This document shows positions 25,119 through 34,077 of a DNA stretch of 64,000 nt, in pieces. The notes below the pieces were generated by a model, which saw nothing but the letters and a program-made list of their open reading frames with translations, was not told the origin of the DNA and made no database searches. Both the position numbers and the translations under genes were made by a program. This DNA is from Anaerolineaceae bacterium (GTDB lineage: Bacteria; Chloroflexota; Anaerolineae; Anaerolineales; Anaerolineaceae), in NCBI GenBank assembly GCA_016841525.1, contig JAENYZ010000005.1, positions 85,084-149,083 on the forward strand, written 5' to 3'. Position 1 is the first letter of the stretch. Every line of letters begins with the position of its first letter.

Positions 25119-25135
25119 CTTTTTCATAAAAATTT

Positions 25136-25166
25136 GTCGGGGCGGACGGATTTGAACCGTCGACCT
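25136..25166. repeat. Left 31-base direct repeat (attachment site)
   Basis: The 31 bases are identical to 34003-34033, which is the 3' end of tRNA-Pro (acceptor strand, T-arm). Duplication of a tRNA 3' end at the far side of an island is the signature of integration by a tyrosine recombinase. Confidence 0.85.
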
Positions 25167-25260
25167 TCGCGCAGCAACCTTTAGAGCACCAACCAAAAAC
25201 ACCTCTATCTCTAGAAGTGTTTTAAGTCAGCTCCCTGCGGGAGTTCCACTTCGCTCCAGA

Positions 25261-25292
25261 GCGGACGGATTTGAACCGTCGACCTCACGGAC
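25261..25292. repeat. Second partial tRNA-Pro copy inside the left end
   Basis: These 32 bases are identical to 34009-34040, reaching from the acceptor into the anticodon stem, while the acceptor's last bases are replaced by CTCCAGA. It is preceded by a decayed copy of the tRNA terminator (AAAACACCTC..AAGTGTTTT at about 25195-25223). It may be an older or alternative attachment site. Confidence 0.8.
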
Positions 25293-25628: not shown

Positions 25629-26417
25629 ATGGATGAATTTTTTATTTACTTGGGAAGACTTTATCCTCAAATATGGGCTGCGATAATTAATTTAATAGGA
25701 ATAATTATTGTTGGATTATTTATAAATAAAAGGTTAATAAAAATGACTGCTCTATTTAATGAAAGGGGGTTGAAAAGAATTGCCATTTATGAAAAAGTGT
25801 TATCAGATTCGAGACAATATCTCAAATCAGTCCAATCAATTGTTGAGAAATATATTGAGGTTTTCATTCTTAATCCTCTTAAATATCTTCATCTTCTTGA
25901 TGAGTATAATTTGGATACAGAAAAGAATATCAATATAGGAAAACAAATTATTGAAGAAAGAATAAAGAAATTTGAGGATGAAGGTATTTACAATTCATTT
26001 ATTTATAATTTTGAGATATCTGGGAAATTAATTTATTCACTTTATAAATCTTTGACTCCTGAGATTAAAGATTTTGCTGATGAGTTAGAAAAGAAGGTCT
26101 TTATTTCTTATTTTAATGATTCACCTTTTATAGATTATGAAATGCTCAAACAGGCTAAAGAACTTATTACAATAATGGAATCTAACCAATCTTACGCAAA
26201 ATACCTAAGTTCATATAAAGATCCTTCTTCTAATGGCATTGAAAAACATGAAGAAATTGAATACTTCCAATTAGAAAATTTTTCTGATGCCGAAGCACTA
26301 TTAGAAATTGAAGTTTATTTAGTCTCTAAAGGACTATATCTGAATAGTAAACTTCTTAAATTAAAAGAAAAATGTATGAGCTATATTCAAGATTTTGAAA
26401 ATAAAACGTTCTCATAA
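25629..26417 (+). CDS. Membrane-anchored helical protein of unknown function
   Basis: The 262-residue protein has one N-terminal membrane helix (IWAAIINLIGIIIVGLFI) followed by a short basic stretch, then an almost entirely alpha-helical, AT-rich-encoded cytoplasmic region with lysine/glutamate-rich helices. AGGAAAG precedes ATG. I recognise no family. It is the first gene of the element, 122 bases ahead of the Ntn-hydrolase gene on the same strand. The topology would suit a membrane-linked effector or receptor of the neighbouring protease-like protein; this is inference. Confidence 0.75.
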   Translation: MDEFFIYLGRLYPQIWAAIINLIGIIIVGLFINKRLIKMTALFNERGLKRIAIYEKVLSDSRQYLKSVQSIVEKYIEVFILNPLKYLHLLDEYNLDTEKNINIGKQIIEERIKKFEDEGIYNSFIYNFEISGKLIYSLYKSLTPEIKDFADELEKKVFISYFNDSPFIDYEMLKQAKELITIMESNQSYAKYLSSYKDPSSNGIEKHEEIEYFQLENFSDAEALLEIEVYLVSKGLYLNSKLLKLKEKCMSYIQDFENKTFS

Positions 26418-26539: not shown

Positions 26540-27802
26540 ATGACAGCAGAATTCATTGTAATGAATCTTGAGGGTATTGCCTTAGCTGCAGATAGTGCGG
26601 GGACTCTCACGGATTCAAAAATCAACAACAACATGAATAAGCTATTTATGTTAGCGCCAGGTCATTCTGTTGGTTTAATGATATACAATAAAGCTGATTT
26701 TATGGGTATTCCTTGGGAAATCATAATTAAAAGGTTTCGAGAGAAGATAATAACTGACAACACAATCTATCCAAGACTAAGTGATTATTATGACAAACTT
26801 ATTGAATTTATTATTAATAATGAAAACCTAATCTCCAATGAGGAGGTGCAAAAACAATTAATTGAATTTGTTGCATTCCACATATGTTCAAAAATTCTAT
26901 ATGATATCTGGGATGAATACTTATACTGGTTTGCAGAAAATTCCAAGAAGATAACCGAAACTAAATTAATCGAAATTGCCTCAAAAGTTTTCGATGATTA
27001 TTTTCAGTGCGTGGAAAAACATGATCTGGATTCTGACTTAAGAGACGATAAAGGAGTGGAATACACAAGAAAATTCCTCGACCAGTTTGGAGAAAGTTTA
27101 GCTGGGATGCGGAATTACATTTTTGAAAATTTTCCTCTATCTAAAGATAACATCGAAAAGTTAGAAAAGATTATTATTGACCATTTTAGAAAGGATCTAT
27201 CGAATGAAAGAAAATTAGATTTTAAGAATTACAGTGGGCTTGTTATTGCAGGCTATGGAAAAGAAGATCTCTTTCCAAAATTAATAAATATCCGCATCGA
27301 AAATTTAATTATGTCAAGGCTCAAATATAATAAAATTTTTGATATGCAAGTAAGTTTACAAGATCCTGCTAAAATTTCAGGCTTTGCACAGGATGATATA
27401 TTTCAAAATATTGTTTTTGGTAGACATCCAGAATTTATCAATTGTTTAATAGATGTGTTACAAAACCAATATGCGGCAATGGGTCAAGATAGGGATCAGA
27501 TAAACAAAAATGTTAACGAAACCGTAAGAGAAATTGATAAAAGAATGCGTGAACGATATACTAGATCAATATATCAAGTCGTTCGTTTTCTACCAAAAGA
27601 TGATTTGGCTCAAATGGCTGAAACAATGGTAAATCTTACAGGTTTTATGAGACGTGTATCAATGTCACCTGAAACGGTTGCTGGCCCCGTTGATGTAGCA
27701 GTTATATCAAGAAAAGATGGTTTTATTTGGATTAAAAGAAAACATTATTTCGATATAGAGTATAATTACCATTACAAAATGAGAGGAGAAAGGGATGTCT
27801 GA
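26540..27802 (+). CDS. Proteasome-type Ntn hydrolase with a large helical insertion
   Basis: After loss of Met1 the chain begins TAEFIVMNLEGIALAADSAG. Counting Thr as residue 1, Asp17 (AADS) and Lys33 (MNKLF) fall exactly where the proteasome beta-subunit/HslV catalytic triad needs them, and residues 11-21 mirror the GxxLAADxxxT beta-subunit signature. A C-terminal segment, AGPVDVAVISRKDGFIWIK, looks like the last strands of the same sandwich fold. At 420 residues it is about twice as long as HslV, Anbu or beta subunits, the extra ~200 being helical. No propeptide or ATPase gene is seen. GAGAGAGG precedes ATG 26540. Its 3' end overlaps the 56-residue gene. Confidence 0.75.
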   Translation: MTAEFIVMNLEGIALAADSAGTLTDSKINNNMNKLFMLAPGHSVGLMIYNKADFMGIPWEIIIKRFREKIITDNTIYPRLSDYYDKLIEFIINNENLISNEEVQKQLIEFVAFHICSKILYDIWDEYLYWFAENSKKITETKLIEIASKVFDDYFQCVEKHDLDSDLRDDKGVEYTRKFLDQFGESLAGMRNYIFENFPLSKDNIEKLEKIIIDHFRKDLSNERKLDFKNYSGLVIAGYGKEDLFPKLINIRIENLIMSRLKYNKIFDMQVSLQDPAKISGFAQDDIFQNIVFGRHPEFINCLIDVLQNQYAAMGQDRDQINKNVNETVREIDKRMRERYTRSIYQVVRFLPKDDLAQMAETMVNLTGFMRRVSMSPETVAGPVDVAVISRKDGFIWIKRKHYFDIEYNYHYKMRGERDV

Positions 27803-27965
27803 CCAAAAGGAGATAACTTATTCATTGGCAGAAATACAAAGAACATTCTTCCCAAAGAAATCATTGAGAGAATTGAATAAACAACATAATTGCAACGACA
27901 TATTTCAAATACCACAAGAAATCAGGGAAGAAGATGTAAAGAAAGAAAGCAATAAACAAAAATAA
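27795..27965 (+). CDS. 56-residue partner of the Ntn hydrolase
   Basis: This short frame (MSDQKEITYSLAEIQRTFFP at the start, Lys/Glu-rich end) overlaps the Ntn-hydrolase stop by 8 bases and is preceded by AGGAGAAAGGG inside that gene, so it is translationally coupled. It is charged, without a signal or membrane segment. A terminator follows 5 bases after its stop, defining a two-gene unit. It could be a substrate, an inhibitor or an adaptor for the Ntn hydrolase. No family recognised. Confidence 0.7.
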   Translation: MSDQKEITYSLAEIQRTFFPKKSLRELNKQHNCNDIFQIPQEIREEDVKKESNKQK

Positions 27966-27970
27966 ATTAG

Positions 27971-28003
27971 AAACCCTCACTTATTCTTAGTGAGGGTTTT
28001 TTG
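27971..28003 (+). terminator. Terminator of the Ntn-hydrolase unit
   Basis: AAACCCTCACT pairs with AGTGAGGGTTT around a 7-base loop and is followed by TTTTTG. Confidence 0.9.
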
Positions 28004-28075: not shown

Positions 28076-28576
28076 TTATTGATCTGGTTTCCTTTTTCCC
28101 CTATTTTCAAAATATTTCTTTACTTTTTCTTCATGCTCTTTAGCTGCTGCAGTAAGCTCTATTAATTCCCAAATCATCTTTTTGGGATCAAATTCACCTA
28201 ATACCCTTACCTGGTCAACAGCTACCCTTTGTAAATACTCATCCCAAATTTTCCTAAATTCCATAATTAACTCGTGCTCTAAAGGAGAAAATCTTTCTTG
28301 CTTTAATTCTCTATAAACAAAAGGCGGAAAGAAATAAGTGATAGGTTTTTCTAGTGCAGCTGCAATTAATGCTAAGGCACCAGAATTAACTTCAATTTTG
28401 CCGTTTTCAATATCGGAAACCGTTGTCTGCTTTCGATAAATTAGCTCTGCCAGTTCTTTCTGACTTAATCCAGCCTGATTTCGAGCAACCTTAATTAATT
28501 CACCCATAGCAATAGTAAATTTATTTGGTGTTGGATCTTTATCTGAAACCAATTTAGATATTAAGTCTAGGGGCAT
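28076..28576 (-). CDS. XRE-family repressor of the integrated element
   Basis: The 166-residue protein has a canonical Cro/CI helix-turn-helix at about residues 25-80 (LIKVARNQAGLSQKELAELI followed by YRKQTTVSDIENGK) and a C-terminal helical domain that probably mediates dimerisation; no peptidase or cupin domain is present. ATG 28576 is preceded by GGAG. It is divergent from the replication operon and faces a strong promoter covered by a long palindrome at 28608-28648, the expected operator of a CI-like control switch. Confidence 0.9.
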   Translation of the reverse strand: MPLDLISKLVSDKDPTPNKFTIAMGELIKVARNQAGLSQKELAELIYRKQTTVSDIENGKIEVNSGALALIAAALEKPITYFFPPFVYRELKQERFSPLEHELIMEFRKIWDEYLQRVAVDQVRVLGEFDPKKMIWELIELTAAAKEHEEKVKKYFENRGKRKPDQ

Positions 28577-28740: not shown

Positions 28741-28847
28741 TCCGCAGCCATTTTACCCTGTGAGCCGAGCCTCATTGTCAAGGGCGGTGAGCGGAGCGGC
28801 GCAAGCCAGGAGCCTTGATAATGAGAGCGAACAGGGTAGGCTGCGGA
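28741..28847. repeat. Long imperfect inverted repeat, possible replication or transfer origin
   Basis: Left arm CCGCAGCC-ATTT-TACCCTGT..CTCATTGTCAAGG (28743-28782) and right arm CCTTGATAATGAG..ACAGGGTA-GGCTGCGG (28813-28846) pair over about 35 positions around a ~30-base GC-rich centre. The block is far richer in G+C than the rest of the element and contains repeated CGGACGG/GCGGAGCGG motifs to 28860. It lies directly before the ribbon-helix-helix and HUH Rep genes, the place for an origin nicked by Rep. Confidence 0.65.
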
Positions 28848-28891
28848 TGGACGGACGGCGGGGTAGGGCAAGAAAAAAGGAGAAGAAAATC

Positions 28892-29152
28892 ATGACAAAA
28901 AAAGGATCATACAGACGTATCCAGGTAACGATACCTTTGGAAACGAAATCAAAAATGATGCAATGGCATCAAAACTCTGGGCTGAAGAGGGCTGAATTCT
29001 TTCGGATTGCTCTAATGATCGGAGTATGCAAATTAGCGGAAAGCGTCAAGGCTAAAAGAGAGAATGAAAACTATTTACCAAATTCTGAAAACCTACCCAT
29101 GCGCTTGCCCGGACGTGAGGAGGACGACCGCATGGGTAGGTTAGAGGTCTAA
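28892..29152 (+). CDS. Ribbon-helix-helix DNA-binding protein
   Basis: ATG 28892 has AGGAGA upstream; the longer frame to 28760 runs through the inverted repeat and is rejected. The 86-residue protein has an N-terminal RHH fold: a beta strand YRRIQVTIPLETK, helix KMMQWHQNSG, and helix RAEFFRIALMIGVCKLA. This is a CopG/MetJ-type DNA-binding unit. Next to a HUH Rep and a large inverted repeat it may repress rep or act as accessory protein at the origin. The C-terminal 35 residues are charged and without clear fold. Confidence 0.8.
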   Translation: MTKKGSYRRIQVTIPLETKSKMMQWHQNSGLKRAEFFRIALMIGVCKLAESVKAKRENENYLPNSENLPMRLPGREEDDRMGRLEV

Positions 29153-29163
29153 GAAGGAATTAT

Positions 29164-30054
29164 ATGTTTAACGAATCAGATTTTGATTTTGATAAACCTT
29201 ACATACTAACATCACCTAAGGGTTATGTCGTAGATAAATCTACTGGTGAGATTATCTTCTCCGTTTTGGATGCATCACAAGAAAAGATTAAAAAAATCCG
29301 AACAGAAATTGATTGGCGTGCATCGCTAGAGTATTGTTCTGAGCGAATGGGTCATGAATTTGCTTTAGCGAAACTAGATAGCCTCTATCATCTATGTTAT
29401 TGGGAATATCCGGATTATCATCCTGGCTTCCTTACAGATCCACCTAAACAGCAACAAAATGATAATGACGATATTAATAGGGGCTTGTCTAATACCAACA
29501 AAGTTCACGAAGTAATACTGAGAAATAAACATACAGGGCAATATATTTACCTAAAAAAAAGAGAAGCTAGATTGCCAAAAATGAGAAGGCGGGTGTTTGC
29601 TTGGGCGGACACGCTAAAAGGATATCTGAATAACATCGAAAGATACAGAAAAGTTATGATTACCCTAACTTACGCTGGCGTGGGGGATTGGCAAGCTAAT
29701 GACATTCGAGATTACATGAAAGCCTTAAAAAGAAAACTGGGAGACAACTTGATAGCGTGCGCTTGGGTATCTGAATTGCAAAAAAGGGGGGCTGTTCATT
29801 ATCATGTCATGTTAGTTTGCAAAAGAGGAACCAGGATACCAAAACCCGATGAATCCGGCATGTGGAAACATGGCATGAGCAGGATTGAAACTGCTAAGAC
29901 AGTATTTTATTTATGCTCTTACCTGAAAAAAACCTACCAAAAAGAAGGGGAATTCCCTAAAGGCATGAGAATGTACTCTGTCTGGATTGCTAAATGGGCA
30001 GTAAAGAAAATCGCTCTTTGGAGAATGAGAATATCAGTTTGCCAAGATGGTTAG
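29164..30054 (+). CDS. HUH-type rolling-circle Rep protein, 3' end frameshifted
   Basis: The 296-residue frame has Rep motif 1 (KVMITLTYAG), motif 2 with the metal-binding HUH pair (GAVHYHVML, His212 and His214) and a motif 3 tyrosine region (FYLCSYLKKTYQK). Such proteins nick single-stranded origins and stay joined to the 5' end through tyrosine. The N-terminal 130 residues are element-specific. Near 29994 the protein frame becomes poor (KKIALWRMRISVCQDG then stop), while the -1 frame stays open to 30203 with SLPRWLEKHIVTMEEHRGEK and GGGWWFGGRFFRSPYVF. A real frameshift mutation, a sequencing error or programmed slippage would each restore a ~345-residue protein. Confidence 0.85.
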   Translation: MFNESDFDFDKPYILTSPKGYVVDKSTGEIIFSVLDASQEKIKKIRTEIDWRASLEYCSERMGHEFALAKLDSLYHLCYWEYPDYHPGFLTDPPKQQQNDNDDINRGLSNTNKVHEVILRNKHTGQYIYLKKREARLPKMRRRVFAWADTLKGYLNNIERYRKVMITLTYAGVGDWQANDIRDYMKALKRKLGDNLIACAWVSELQKRGAVHYHVMLVCKRGTRIPKPDESGMWKHGMSRIETAKTVFYLCSYLKKTYQKEGEFPKGMRMYSVWIAKWAVKKIALWRMRISVCQDG

Positions 30055-30195: not shown

Positions 30196-30609
30196 ATGGG
30201 TAGTAATGATCGGAGTCCAAGATTATCTAGAGCCGAGGTCATCAGACTAAGCAGGCTTTTATATATGGATTATCGACCGTCTGAAATAGCGGATTTGTTA
30301 GAAGTTAGCGTTGATACTGTTTATAGGTCTTATATTCCTGCTGGTTGTCCTCATGAGAGAGATGAAACCGGGCATATATGGATATTGGGTACAGCTTTTA
30401 AGGCTTGGGCTGAAGAGATTTTAGCAGAACGAAAAAGGGAAAAATCAATACCAATGAAACCGGATGAAGGTTGGTGTTTAAACTGTAATATGCGAGTAAA
30501 AATGATTTCCCCAAAAATAATCTACTCAGCCAGGAATAGAGAAATAATTCAGTCAAATTGTAAAAAATGTGACGGAAAAGTCAATAGGGCAAGGAAAAGG
30601 AATGGCTGA
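30196..30609 (+). CDS. Helix-turn-helix protein with C-terminal zinc ribbon
   Basis: The start is ATG 30196 (MGSNDRSPRLSR), after the Rep tail frame. Of 137 residues the first half is a homeodomain-like helix-turn-helix (SRAEVIRLSRLLYMDYRPSE, IADLLEVSVDTVYRSY), followed by a short winged strand with HIWILGTAFKAWAEEI. The second half is a four-cysteine zinc ribbon (CLNCNMR .. CKKCDGK). The stop overlaps the integrase start by 8 bases. It is likely a DNA-binding accessory such as an excisionase or regulator of the integrase; this is inferred from position. Confidence 0.75.
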   Translation: MGSNDRSPRLSRAEVIRLSRLLYMDYRPSEIADLLEVSVDTVYRSYIPAGCPHERDETGHIWILGTAFKAWAEEILAERKREKSIPMKPDEGWCLNCNMRVKMISPKIIYSARNREIIQSNCKKCDGKVNRARKRNG

Positions 30610-31603
30610 GAAAGAGCGTAAAGGCCGAAAAAACTACTTCGAGGTGCAAAGGTATCTCGATTATCAAAAACATGTCAAGCAGTCCTCTCAAGCGACCTTA
30701 AAAAGAAAATGGGCACATCTTCAACACCTGCTAGAATGGGCGGTTGCTATTCGGTTTTATGATACGCCTAAATTAGAATTGACATTTCAGAATTATATTC
30801 TTGAAGCTCGAAATGATTGAAAAAATAAAGCATTATCAGCAAACACGATGAATAGAGCATGTAAAGAAGTCCAGGCTTTCTTTAGATGGGCAAAAATGGT
30901 TATTTCGAACAAATATAATAAAGTTTCTGAAAAATGGATAGACACCATTAGGTTGTCAAAAACTAAAAGTAACTTACATGGTTTTCAGGATAGAAAATAT
31001 TACACCTTGAAAGAAGTTAAAAGGATTTGCAATTACGAACCGGAATTATTAATTGATAAAAGAGATCGCGCAGCGGTAGCTTTGCTTTATCTTTCAGCAA
31101 TGAGAATTACAGCTTTTGTAAGTTTACCTGTGGGTTGTGTTGATATTGATGATATGACCATATATCAAGATCCAAATGAGGGGGTCATAACTAAAAATTC
31201 AAAAAGCATGAAGACCATTTTATTACCAATTGAACCATTATTAGAGGTTGTTAGAGATTGGGATAATTTAGTTCGTGAAGAATTAGGGCTAGATGCGCTT
31301 TGGTATCCAAAAATGAGTACCGATGGCTTATCCTGGGGGAATACTGAAGGCGATACTGAAGCGAGTAGAAAAAGCTTCAAAAGAGGTTTGAAAAAATTAT
31401 GCAAACTGACGGACGTAGAATATAAATCCTCCCATAAACTAAGAAAAGGTCATGGGGTTTATGCGGTTGAACATTCTGACAATTATCAAGAATTCCAAGC
31501 TTATTCTCAAAATATGGATCATGAAGATCCAGGAACAACTTACAGATATTACAGTAAATTATCAAATGATGATGTAAAAGACATCATTCTAAGAAAGAAG
31601 TAG
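30602..31603 (+). pseudogene. Tyrosine recombinase/integrase interrupted by one in-frame TGA
   Basis: From ATG 30602 the frame runs to a TGA at 30818-30820 and continues open in the same frame to 31603, giving about 333 codons in total. N-terminal part: SAM-like core-binding domain. C-terminal part: catalytic Arg in LYLSAMRITAF, Lys in NSKSMKTILL, HKLRKGHG (His-x2-Arg), MDHEDPGTTYRYY with His and the nucleophile Tyr. TGA replaces a position where Trp (TGG) would fit (EARND-x-KNKALS). The C-terminal part could be re-initiated at 30848. The integrase is the enzyme expected to have used the tRNA-Pro site; in its present form it is probably inactive unless the stop is read through. Confidence 0.85.
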
Positions 31604-31756: not shown

Positions 31757-33853
31757 TTATCCAAAGTGCTCGCGAATGTATTCAGTTGCCTCAGAATAGG
31801 ATAATGGCCGGGTAGAATTATGAAGTCTGACATAAAATTTTTCATGTCCATCATCTTGCATATAAATTGGTCTTGAACTCTGATCAACCCTTACTATGCA
31901 AACATCATGACTGTTTTCATGAACGAAATTTATTTGAATTAGCGGAAGTGTTCCCGAGCCAAGCTTTGAAACAATTTCATTTGTTAATTCAATTTCAAAC
32001 CCATCACGGTTTTGTTTACCTTGAACAGCATAATCACCTTCAATTCCTTTGATCTCACCATCATCATCAACGCCAATAATTAAATATCCACCATTTTTAT
32101 TAAGCAATCCTGCTATACTCTTTGAAACAGCAGTTTCTAATCGGTAAGTATCACTACCTCCGTGAAATCGAACCTTAAACTCTATTTTTTCACCCTCCCC
32201 CTTTGTAAGCAATGAACTCAGATTAAATGGCTGTTCACCTGTATTGTCTTCAAGAAGATTTGCCATATGACTATTAATTGCTTCTGCGATCAACAGTCGT
32301 CTTTGGGCTAGAAATTCCTCATAATTTTCAATTTTCCATAATTTCCGATTTGTAGGAATTAATGACTTTTCAAGATTTCCTGGATATTTTTCTTCTACTA
32401 TTGGCAAATATTCTTCTGGGGAATTATCAAAAATTTCTAAATTCCCAGACTTCGTTAACGGAATACGATTTGCTAGTTCATGAACTCTCTTACTAGCATA
32501 TTGGCTTTCACCAGTATCCCAACCAGCTTTTGATAACACACTCTTTGGGAAAATATGATGCCGTTCAATACTAAAATCTGCATTATTTGTGGTTATTAAA
32601 GGCAATCCATTTGCCCAATCAACTGCACCTCTAGCTCGAATAATTATGCTCATCATATTATAGAGGGGATTCCCAACACCTCTCATATCCAGACTAGCAG
32701 CTGATAATTGTGGATCGCCTTCATCTTCCTTTAAGTTCGTCAATAATGATTCAGGACCAGGCTCATCTAATAGAGCTCGAATATCCTTATCAAGCGTTGA
32801 ATCGACACTTCCTGAAAAATGTCTTTGATAAAGGGCAGCATAAAGCCAATGAATAAATTTTCTTTCGGTTTTTTGTGTGAACCATCCATATTTTGATAAA
32901 TATACAACTATTGGAACAAGCACATTTGTAGTATTCAGATCTTCATCACCAACAATATATGCTTTATTTTGTAGAAAAGGAATAAGATAATTCAACGTTT
33001 TATCCAGACTTCCCCAAGCATCTTTTAAGTCGGTTTCATTAGGTTCACCAAACCTTGCTAGATCACCAACTCCATCTGTTATACCAACCAAACAGCGTGT
33101 TAAGAAAGTCAAGTCAAATGTAAAATTGTTATTCTTTAATTCAGCAAGTTTCTCTTTGAATATTCGTCTAATATCTGGCCATTCAGCAGTCAAATAAGCT
33201 AACACAATATCTGATTGGGTTAGAGGTGTACCCTGACTGTTAATCAAATCAAAGACTTTTATAGCTTCCCTCACTTTTGCTTCTGAAGGAACAGTCTGAA
33301 TAGGATATTCAATTTCTTTGATTTGCTCAATTTTTCGAATGTTTTTTTCTATAGGTTTTGCCAATTTCTCACGTTCAGCTGGATCTGAAATATTTAATTG
33401 CTCTAGAAGTGCATATACAGATGGTGCATCTTGGAAAATATTACTTAATTTAATCCAAAGGGGATCGTCTTTCATCTCAAGCTTCTTATAATATCGGAAA
33501 ACCCCAGTTTTTAAATTAAAGAAAAGATCAAATAAATTCTCGTTTATCTCTTCGGGAGCATAATAAGGAGGGATAGTATTCTTTATGTGAAGGTATAGAC
33601 TTGTTAGTCTTTGCTGTCCGTCAAGGAGGACTTTGACCCTACGAATCTTTTCTAAGTCATATGCATCTTGTTTAATTTTTGGTGGATTACTTGTTTCCCA
33701 TAATAACAAACTACCTGTAGGATAACCTTTGTAGAAAGATTCAAATAAACTTCGAACTTGATCTCTATTCCAGGTAAATTCTCGTTGAAATTCTGGCAAT
33801 ACAATTTCTTTCTCTTCTATTTGCTCAAGTAATTTTTTAATTGATGATGCCAT
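31757..33853 (-). CDS. DUF262-HNH (GmrSD-like) protein fused to AlbA_2/Schlafen-type domain
   Basis: The 698-residue protein has the DUF262 start VLPEFQREFTWNRDQVRSLF, the nucleotide-site motif DGQQRLTSLY, and INSQGTPLTQSDI, then helical DUF1524-like sequence with an HNH-type ERHHIFPKS (~residue 430) and a final ~130-residue AlbA_2 domain (GEGEKIEFKVRF .. GGYLIIGVDDDGEIKGIE). GmrSD-type enzymes cut modified phage DNA. The AlbA_2 addition is found in other conflict proteins but this fusion is less usual. AGGAGGG precedes ATG 33853. It is the cargo gene nearest the tRNA-Pro end and faces the integrase. A defence role is inferred from the family. Confidence 0.88.
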   Translation of the reverse strand: MASSIKKLLEQIEEKEIVLPEFQREFTWNRDQVRSLFESFYKGYPTGSLLLWETSNPPKIKQDAYDLEKIRRVKVLLDGQQRLTSLYLHIKNTIPPYYAPEEINENLFDLFFNLKTGVFRYYKKLEMKDDPLWIKLSNIFQDAPSVYALLEQLNISDPAEREKLAKPIEKNIRKIEQIKEIEYPIQTVPSEAKVREAIKVFDLINSQGTPLTQSDIVLAYLTAEWPDIRRIFKEKLAELKNNNFTFDLTFLTRCLVGITDGVGDLARFGEPNETDLKDAWGSLDKTLNYLIPFLQNKAYIVGDEDLNTTNVLVPIVVYLSKYGWFTQKTERKFIHWLYAALYQRHFSGSVDSTLDKDIRALLDEPGPESLLTNLKEDEGDPQLSAASLDMRGVGNPLYNMMSIIIRARGAVDWANGLPLITTNNADFSIERHHIFPKSVLSKAGWDTGESQYASKRVHELANRIPLTKSGNLEIFDNSPEEYLPIVEEKYPGNLEKSLIPTNRKLWKIENYEEFLAQRRLLIAEAINSHMANLLEDNTGEQPFNLSSLLTKGEGEKIEFKVRFHGGSDTYRLETAVSKSIAGLLNKNGGYLIIGVDDDGEIKGIEGDYAVQGKQNRDGFEIELTNEIVSKLGSGTLPLIQINFVHENSHDVCIVRVDQSSRPIYMQDDGHEKFYVRLHNSTRPLSYSEATEYIREHFG

Positions 33854-33970: not shown

Positions 33971-34000
33971 CCACAAAACACCTCAAAAAAGAGGTGTTTT
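33971..34000 (-). terminator. Terminator downstream of tRNA-Pro
   Basis: On the minus strand AAAACACCTC and GAGGTGTTTT form a 10-base-pair stem around six T, followed by GTGG. A decayed copy of the same hairpin lies at about 25195-25223 beside the second partial tRNA-Pro copy. Confidence 0.7.
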
Positions 34001-34003
34001 TAG

Positions 34004-34077
34004 TCGGGGCGGACGGATTTGAACCGTCGACCTCACGGACCCGAACCGTGCGCACTACCGGGCTGTGCCACGCCCCG
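34004..34077 (-). tRNA. tRNA-Pro (anticodon CGG), integration site of the element
   Basis: The minus strand gives acceptor CGGGGCG / CGCCCCG with discriminator A, a D-arm with GGTAGTGCGC, anticodon stem ACGG/CCGT with loop TTCGGGT (anticodon CGG), and a T-arm GGTTCAAATCC. CCA is not encoded. Its 3' end (34003-34033) is repeated at 25136-25166, so the tRNA was kept intact when the element inserted downstream of it. Confidence 0.95.

What the first reader, a model, noticed from the sequence alone, without database searches (positions are those of the whole stretch)
26540..27965. Large proteasome-type Ntn hydrolase with a small coupled partner in a tRNA-borne element
After Met removal, Thr1, Asp17 and Lys33 sit at exactly the spacing used by proteasome beta subunits and HslV, within an AADS..T signature, yet the chain is 420 residues (about twice normal) with a helical insertion, no ATPase gene and an 8-base overlapping 56-residue gene. 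A terminator closes the unit. A membrane-anchored helical protein precedes it. This looks like a stand-alone protease-like, possibly defence, module rather than a protein-quality-control machine. Triad spacing is seen in the sequence; a defence role is inference from the mobile context.
Basis: partly seen in the sequence, partly recalled or inferred. Interest (0 to 1): 0.75.

Follow-up and report, generated by a model that had tools for sequence, protein, structure and literature searches.

The report
Proteasome-like mobile enzyme with tiny partner
A small mobile element carries a stand-alone relative of the proteasome's cutting subunit together with a tiny partner protein, a pair that also rides in prophages, phage satellites and plasmids of very different bacteria, so it is a good candidate for a protease-based weapon in the conflict between mobile elements that can be tested in E. 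coli.

Summary
The 420-residue protein has Thr1/Asp17/Lys33. Its AlphaFold2 model (pLDDT 91, pTM 0.86) matches proteasome beta subunits in register with Thr1 (Z 18.2). The triad is kept in 80 of 80 distinct sequences, the window's included. The 56-residue gene is real: a small same-strand ORF with ATG and ribosome site follows the enzyme in 65 of 73 viral loci (49 of 57 distinct enzymes), against 12 of 205 background ORFs. It is under purifying selection, yet unannotated in 9 of 9 E. coli carriers. The unit sits in a tRNA-Pro element; elsewhere often beside phage repressors, lysis genes or antiterminator Q, places for lysogen-expressed cargo.

The enzyme family is not new in print: it fits PMI-4 of Fuchs, Alva and Lupas 2021 (PMC8665760), described without function or gene context. 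Apparently new are the coupled partner and cargo context. Defence is the best reading (about 0.55), untested. That the partner restrains the protease is inference (about 0.4); a fold of a read-through fusion gave no docking signal. The upstream membrane gene showed no link.

The parts
26540..27802 (+). Proteasome-type Ntn hydrolase, 420 aa; Thr1/Asp17/Lys33; helical insertion 1 about residues 95-230 (after H1/H2), insertion 2 about residues 297-349 (between H3 and H4)
   Evidence: (phrog_5990, E 2e-87)
27795..27965 (+). Small coupled partner, 56 aa, 8-base overlap, motif IQRTFFP
27971..27999 (.). Hairpin terminator that closes the unit; lies between it and the convergent XRE gene
28076..28576 (-). 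XRE/HTH_3 regulator of the element
28760..29152 (+). Weak RepB-RCR_reg-like small protein (below the Pfam cut-off)
29164..30054 (+). Replication protein, REP_ORF2-G2P family
30569..31603 (+). Tyrosine integrase region: one frame with one in-frame stop, ORFs 30569-30820 (no family match) and 30848-31603 (Phage_integrase). That the first part is the integrase N-terminus is inferred from frame and place
31757..33853 (-). GmrSD_N plus Schlafen/AlbA_2 protein, matches PADLOC candidate HEC-05; on the same element
25629..26417 (+). Membrane-anchored helical protein; on the element, not shown to belong to the pair
25133..25166 (-). Left attachment-site copy (3' end of tRNA-Pro)
34000..34077 (-). Right attachment site inside tRNA-Pro(cgg)

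Best explanation
A two-gene cargo module of mobile elements. Gene 1 is a PMI-type proteasome homologue: removal of the start Met exposes a catalytic Thr1, so there is no propeptide, and the two helical insertions take the place of ATPase and ring control as a built-in lid or binding surface. Gene 2, translated from the end of gene 1, makes a roughly 35-70 residue, mostly basic, fast-evolving partner that binds gene 1. The pair is made in lysogens and element carriers. In the resting cell the partner most likely holds the protease inactive or sets its specificity; an invading phage or rival element disturbs the pair, and the freed threonine protease cuts a target whose loss stops the invader or the cell. 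Shown by computation: fold, triad, gene coupling, selection on gene 2, mobile and prophage context. Inferred: Met removal, binding of the two proteins, partner as restraint, expression in lysogens, trigger, target, defence outcome. Step by step: real pair 0.95; N-terminal threonine hydrolase 0.9; endopeptidase rather than another amide chemistry 0.7; lysogen-expressed cargo 0.85; defence or superinfection exclusion 0.55; partner as inhibitor/antitoxin 0.4.
For: Fold and register: model residue 2 is aligned with residue 1 of chain K of a yeast beta5-mutant entry (taken to be beta5 from its length), 184 aligned residues, rmsd 3.1, Z 18.2; the 50 Foldseek rows shown are all from proteasome or Anbu entries. 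Triad in 80 of 80 distinct sequences, the window's included. A profile places the Thr1 region and the GGxIDVxVIxxxDG strand pair on archaeal proteasome beta, weakly. Partner: 65 of 73 viral loci with ATG plus ribosome site against 12 of 205 background ORFs of 200 aa or more, 72 of 73 against 41 of 205 by a loose rule; by distinct enzyme 49 of 57 and 56 of 57; in two of these loci (L037, L042) the ORF counted is not the one I take for the partner. Under a laxer rule 17 of 19 loci from phage, plasmid and genome records, some close to the viral ones. The same 9 of 5426 E. coli genomes carry both genes. Pooled pS 0.78 and pN 0.33 over 60 non-independent pairs; dN/dS 0.06-0.31 in the 13 of 45 printed rows where it could be computed. 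Context: phage repressor/regulator match for the upstream neighbour in at least 9 of 52 scanned, endolysin or holin in several more; antiterminator Q-like downstream in 12 of 43 scanned; E. coli copies run against the lytic operon in 2 of 2 looked at (of 9) and directly follow an HTH gene in a RecET prophage in 2 of 2 looked at (of 13 partial matches); enzyme and partner are the last two genes of satellite Javan103; tRNA within 1.6 kb in 4 of 6 full-length chromosomal copies of other genomes. Known or candidate defence genes near copies: GmrSD_N/Schlafen here, an EcoO109I-type enzyme with a DNA methylase in L133, multiubiquitin/ThiF operons in L114, L117, L141, L142.
Against: No phenotype, no enzyme assay, no complex structure. 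No PADLOC model matches (best E 0.021). The read-through fusion fold gave block pLDDT 30-55 for the partner, so no predicted docking. Partner sequences are too diverse for one alignment; the [FWILY]xxx[FY][FYLN]P motif is in only 14 of 50 and was chosen after looking. No defence gene near L113 and L115 by annotated names, or near L134 and L138 by my reading of their ORFs, which were not scanned. L114 has no partner and L011 only a doubtful one; L090 in the viral set has none. The sequence link to known proteasome families is weak (E 0.026; PF00227 in 2 of 8 members at best E 0.0063). Satellite Javan421 carries the pair amid other cargo with a relBE pair nearby, so company alone does not single out defence.
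Confidence: 0.42

Rival explanations
1. Lysogeny switch protease: the enzyme cuts a repressor (as metalloprotease ImmA cuts ImmR, recalled) and controls induction of its own element or of a rival; the partner is its signal-responsive restraint.
For: A phage regulator is the upstream neighbour in at least 9 of 52 loci scanned; an HTH gene directly precedes it in the two E. coli RecET prophages looked at; an XRE gene lies convergent in the window.
Against: Other copies sit between methylase and Q genes, beside lysis genes, next to tRNA genes or restriction genes.
Confidence: 0.15
2. Processing enzyme or ligase: the partner is the substrate. Thr1 forms an acyl intermediate with the partner and cuts it or joins it to another protein, as connectase does with its own substrate.
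For: The partner is short, net positive in 49 of 59, co-translated and nearly always present; connectase is a proteasome homologue that ligates (PMC8665760, sections read).
Against: No motif common to all partners was found, which a specific ligase should need; the insertions here (after H2, between H3 and H4) are not at the connectase site between S3 and S4 (PMC8665760).
Confidence: 0.15
3. Effector of a bacterial ubiquitin-like conjugation system.
For: In 5 of 10 plasmid records with the enzyme a ThiF gene of a multiubiquitin operon lies within about 5 kb, in two different arrangements.
Against: 110 plasmid records hold that ThiF gene and only 10 hold the enzyme at all, so at least 100 of the 110 lack it (60 of the 110 were listed); four of the five neighbours look like one Rhizobium lineage; no such gene was seen in the window's element.
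Confidence: 0.05
4. Ordinary housekeeping protease carried along by chance, with a small ORF of no function.
For: No phenotype known; family named only by homology.
Against: Partner excess over background and purifying selection; patchy presence, 9 of 5426 E. coli at full length and 14 of 400 genomes of the phylum, short and partial matches included.
Confidence: 0.05

Closest known systems
PMI-4, Proteasome homolog with Multiple Insertions 4 (Fuchs, Alva, Lupas 2021, PMC8665760)
   Same: Insertions after H1/H2 and between H3/H4; triad Thr1/Asp17/Lys33; no propeptide; wide bacterial spread with phages; no AAA+ partner found
   Different: The paper's main text reports no genomic context and names no partner gene (figures and supplement not seen); no sequence of its representative could be compared here
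phrog_5990 (PHROGs v4, unknown function)
   Same: Full-length match, E 2e-87
   Different: Taken to be the same family; the library gives no function and no partner
20S proteasome beta subunit / Anbu
   Same: Fold, Thr1 register and triad
   Different: About twice the length, two helical insertions, no ATPase found nearby; the residue aligned to the Ser of the SGG stretch is Val
HslV-HslU
   Same: Thr1 and triad
   Different: No HslU gene beside it; large insertions
Type II toxin-antitoxin modules
   Same: Two overlapping or abutting genes, one short and fast-evolving, on mobile DNA
   Different: The short gene comes second; toxicity untested; no known toxin or antitoxin family matched
rexAB-like superinfection exclusion genes of temperate phages (recalled)
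   Same: Position after a repressor-type gene in some prophages
   Different: Not known to be related proteins; comparison from recall only

Membership tests
Proteasome-like Ntn hydrolases | Alpha-beta-beta-alpha fold of proteasome beta type | tested here: met
   model; Foldseek E 7e-5; Z 18.2
Proteasome-like Ntn hydrolases | Thr1/Asp17/Lys33 | tested here: met
   80 of 80 distinct sequences
Proteasome-like Ntn hydrolases | Significant sequence-profile match to a known member | tested here: inconclusive
   E 0.026; PF00227 in 2 of 8 members, best E 0.0063
Proteasome-like Ntn hydrolases | Second-shell Ser129/Asp166/Ser169 (recalled) | tested here: inconclusive
   HMMER sets Val against the Ser of the SGG stretch of archaeal beta; Glu378 and Gly382 each kept in 79 of 80
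PMI-4 | Helical insertion after H1/H2 and between H3/H4 | tested here: met
   helices 101-215 and 297-349 in the model; definition in PMC8665760; PMI-3 shares it
PMI-4 | Found in phages and many bacterial phyla | tested here: met
   Table 1 of PMC8665760
PMI-4 | Sequence match to the representative HDY66466.1 | not testable with these tools
   no tool here gives that record
HslV | Adjacent HslU ATPase | tested here: not met
   no ATPase match among the element genes scanned
HslV | Double-ring assembly | not testable with these tools
   monomer predictions only
Anbu | Long C-terminal helix H5 | tested here: not met
   the last helix of the model is 410-418 only
Type II toxin-antitoxin | Adjacent small partner gene | tested here: met
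Type II toxin-antitoxin | Toxicity neutralised by the partner | not testable with these tools
   needs expression in a laboratory strain
Known anti-phage systems in PADLOC-DB 2.0.0 | Model match | tested here: not met
   best E 0.021 for the enzyme, none for the partner

The most novel reading that the evidence does not exclude
A proteasome-fold immune module that needs no ATPase and perhaps no ring: a single-chain threonine protease kept silent by a hypervariable microprotein that doubles as the infection sensor, so that fast change in the microprotein tracks changing phages while the enzyme stays fixed.
Probability: 0.25. Interest if true: 0.85.

Novelty: new variant of a known kind. Interest (0 to 1): 0.62.

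Why it matters
PMI proteins have been in print since 2021 without genomic context or function. Here such a family turns out to be half of a two-gene unit whose second gene is missing from the annotation of all 9 E. coli genomes that carry one version. That gives a biochemical handle (co-purify the two), a place to look (prophage cargo sites) and a convenient host (E. coli prophages). If it is defence, it would be a proteasome-type protease at work in phage-bacteria conflict.

Tried and rejected
Pfam, NCBIfam and PADLOC scans of the pair gave nothing useful. A scan of viral contigs with the single sequence found no relative; with an alignment it found 145, of which 80 were kept. An apparent 897-aa double-length version in G151 (L017/L025) was first taken for an intein or domain insertion; the reading frame stops and the DNA that follows encodes what reads, by eye and recall, like a transposase, so I take it for a broken copy. 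The 100% identical contig filed under Alkalihalobacillus (L001) looked like recent transfer between distant hosts, but its chromosomal flank is 97.7% identical to the window, so it most likely is a mis-binned contig of the window's own lineage. A Gibbs motif search scored above 12 shuffles (428 against at most 346), but related partners inflate it, so I rely on the counts, which are themselves post hoc. The read-through fusion of enzyme and partner showed no docking. Ubiquitin-like operons as obligatory partner were rejected (at least 100 of 110 lack the enzyme). The upstream membrane gene as part of the unit: no conserved link. A first alignment with separate partner rows (A3) misplaced those rows and was not used. 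Paper searches without a direct hit; one search listed PMC8665760 (abstract, Results and Discussion read); one search looked for papers that cite it (PMC13022661 and PMC10936438: passages only, nothing on PMI function in them; PMC10154401: listing only). Families absent from the list are not excluded by it.

Full report
What is there. Window 26540-27802 encodes a 420-residue protein whose second residue is Thr, with Asp17 and Lys33 at proteasome spacing. A 56-residue gene starts inside its last codons (8-base overlap, AGGAG before it), and a hairpin terminator follows. The pair lies in a low-GC element (34.7% against 46-48%) bounded by a tRNA-Pro gene and a 34-base repeat of its 3' end. A congeneric genome, G024, has about 275 bp between the same left flank and an intact tRNA-Pro where the window has about 8.9 kb; the flank beyond the tRNA is not matched in G024. 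The element also holds a G2P-type replication protein, an XRE regulator, a tyrosine integrase region with one in-frame stop, and a GmrSD_N-Schlafen protein that matches the PADLOC candidate HEC-05.

What the large protein is. Pfam and NCBIfam give no match and PADLOC none better than E 0.021; it is phrog_5990, function unknown. A profile of 8 relatives touches archaeal proteasome beta at two plausible places with weak scores. The AlphaFold2 model from a 52-row alignment has pLDDT 91 and pTM 0.86. The 50 Foldseek rows shown from the PDB are all proteasome or Anbu entries, and VIA-align sets residue 2 on residue 1 of chain K of a yeast beta5-mutant entry with Z 18.2 over 184 residues. Thr1, Asp17 and Lys33 are kept in 80 of 80 distinct sequences, the window's included. 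The extra length is two helical insertions, after H1/H2 (about 95-230) and between H3 and H4 (about 297-349). That is how PMI-3 and PMI-4 are described in Fuchs, Alva and Lupas 2021 (PMC8665760; abstract, Results and Discussion read; figures and supplement not seen), and of the two only PMI-4 is listed there with phages and wide spread. I could not compare sequences with their representative. [quoted passage not shown]

The partner. In 73 viral-collection loci with enough sequence, a 34-85 residue same-strand ORF with ATG and ribosome site begins within -90 to +60 nt of the enzyme's stop in 65, against 12 of 205 other mechanically called ORFs of 200 aa or more in the same loci; by a looser rule 72 of 73 against 41 of 205. 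By distinct enzyme the counts are 49 and 56 of 57. In L037 and L042 the ORF that meets the strict rule is not the one I take for the partner; the background is counted by the same rule. Among 19 loci from phage, plasmid and genome records, some close to viral ones, 17 have a candidate under a laxer rule, L011 is doubtful and L114 lacks it. Synonymous change far exceeds amino-acid change (pooled pS 0.78, pN 0.33 in 60 non-independent pairs), so it is coding; it changes faster than the enzyme in nearly all printed rows. Of 59 peptides collected the median length is 55 and 49 have net positive charge. A recurrent [FWILY]xxx[FY][FYLN]P motif links the window's partner (IQRTFFP) with those of the same-family genome G065, of other phages and of the WQKxFNP group: 14 of 50 at one redundancy cut, 9 of 40 at the strictest, about 0.2-0.3 expected from shuffles; it was chosen after looking. 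In E. coli the same 9 of 5426 genomes hold enzyme and partner, and in none of the 9 is the partner annotated. In two E. coli copies of a second group the annotated start lies 33 codons upstream of the conserved Met-Thr, which would hide the nucleophile.

Context. Relatives occur in 13 phage records (Streptococcus satellites and phages, Stenotrophomonas, Porphyromonas, Providencia), 10 plasmid records (Enterococcus, Pantoea, Alphaproteobacteria) and 145 viral contigs. Upstream neighbours match phage repressors or regulators in at least 9 of 52 and endolysins or holins in several more; downstream neighbours match antiterminator Q in 12 of 43 (their strands were not matched one by one). Among 57 loci with a downstream neighbour it is on the opposite strand in 37. 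In E. coli the gene runs against the lytic operon in the 2 copies looked at of 9, and follows an HTH gene in a RecET prophage in the 2 looked at of 13 partial matches. In satellite Javan103 the pair is the last two genes; in Javan421 it lies amid other cargo. Defence-type genes near copies: here GmrSD_N-Schlafen; in L133 an EcoO109I-type enzyme with a methylase; in Rhizobium and Mesorhizobium plasmids multiubiquitin/ThiF operons. Against this, L113 and L115 show none by annotated names, and L134 and L138 none by my reading of unscanned ORFs, and at least 100 of 110 plasmid records with that ThiF gene lack the enzyme.

How it most likely works. Shown by computation: an N-terminal threonine hydrolase fold with an intact triad, a start that needs no propeptide, no ATPase found beside it, a coupled conserved partner, and placement as mobile and prophage cargo. 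Inferred: expression in lysogens; the partner binds the enzyme and restrains or directs it; infection or a rival element releases it; proteolysis of a target ends the infection. A read-through fusion fold of one viral-collection pair left the partner at block pLDDT 30-55: this neither supports nor excludes binding, since the fusion linker is short and only seven rows informed it. A version of 320 residues without insertion 1 (L018, L019, L026) keeps the partner gene, so insertion 1 is not what the partner needs.

Known or new. The enzyme family is in print; the two-gene unit and its context were not found in the parts read of the source paper or in the listings, which cover open-licence PubMed Central papers only. 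I rate it a new variant of a known kind. Interest 0.62: no phenotype yet, but an open question about PMI proteins becomes directly testable in laboratory E. coli.

Noticed in passing
window 30569-31603: The tyrosine integrase region has one in-frame stop before the catalytic domain, so the element may no longer move by itself.
   Followed up: partly
window 25252-25285: A third copy of the attachment repeat, 119 bp after the first; L001 has about 100 further bases at this place, which suggests tandem integration events.
   Followed up: no
L001: A contig filed as an Alkalihalobacillus MAG is 99.95% identical to the element and 97.7% to the flanking chromosome of the window: probably a mis-binned contig.
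   Followed up: partly
window 31757-33853: GmrSD_N domain together with a Schlafen AlbA_2 domain in one protein, to my recall an unusual C-terminal half for a GmrSD-like protein.
   Followed up: no
L114, L117, L141, L142: The enzyme lies within about 5 kb of a multiubiquitin-ThiF operon (in some with DUF6527 and a Clp-type protease) in rhizobial plasmids, in two different arrangements.
   Followed up: partly
L018, L019, L026: A 320-aa version lacks helical insertion 1, yet keeps a 52-53 aa partner that overlaps by 32-35 nt.
   Followed up: partly
L020, L024, L030: Short distant relatives of about 280-340 aa, one (L024) with Ser1 and Glu17, each with a small ORF near the end; no Pfam match.
   Followed up: partly
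L121, L122 (E. coli): Annotated start is 33 codons upstream of the conserved Met-Thr, which would mask the N-terminal nucleophile.
   Followed up: yes
L132 (G016): A weak match (E 6.6e-4, 25% identity) to the upstream membrane gene lies about 2.5 kb from a tRNA-Pro match in another genome of the genus, so that gene may be cargo of a related element.
   Followed up: no
L066 6248-7120: A Ku protein gene lies about 1 kb downstream of a viral-contig copy of the enzyme.
   Followed up: no
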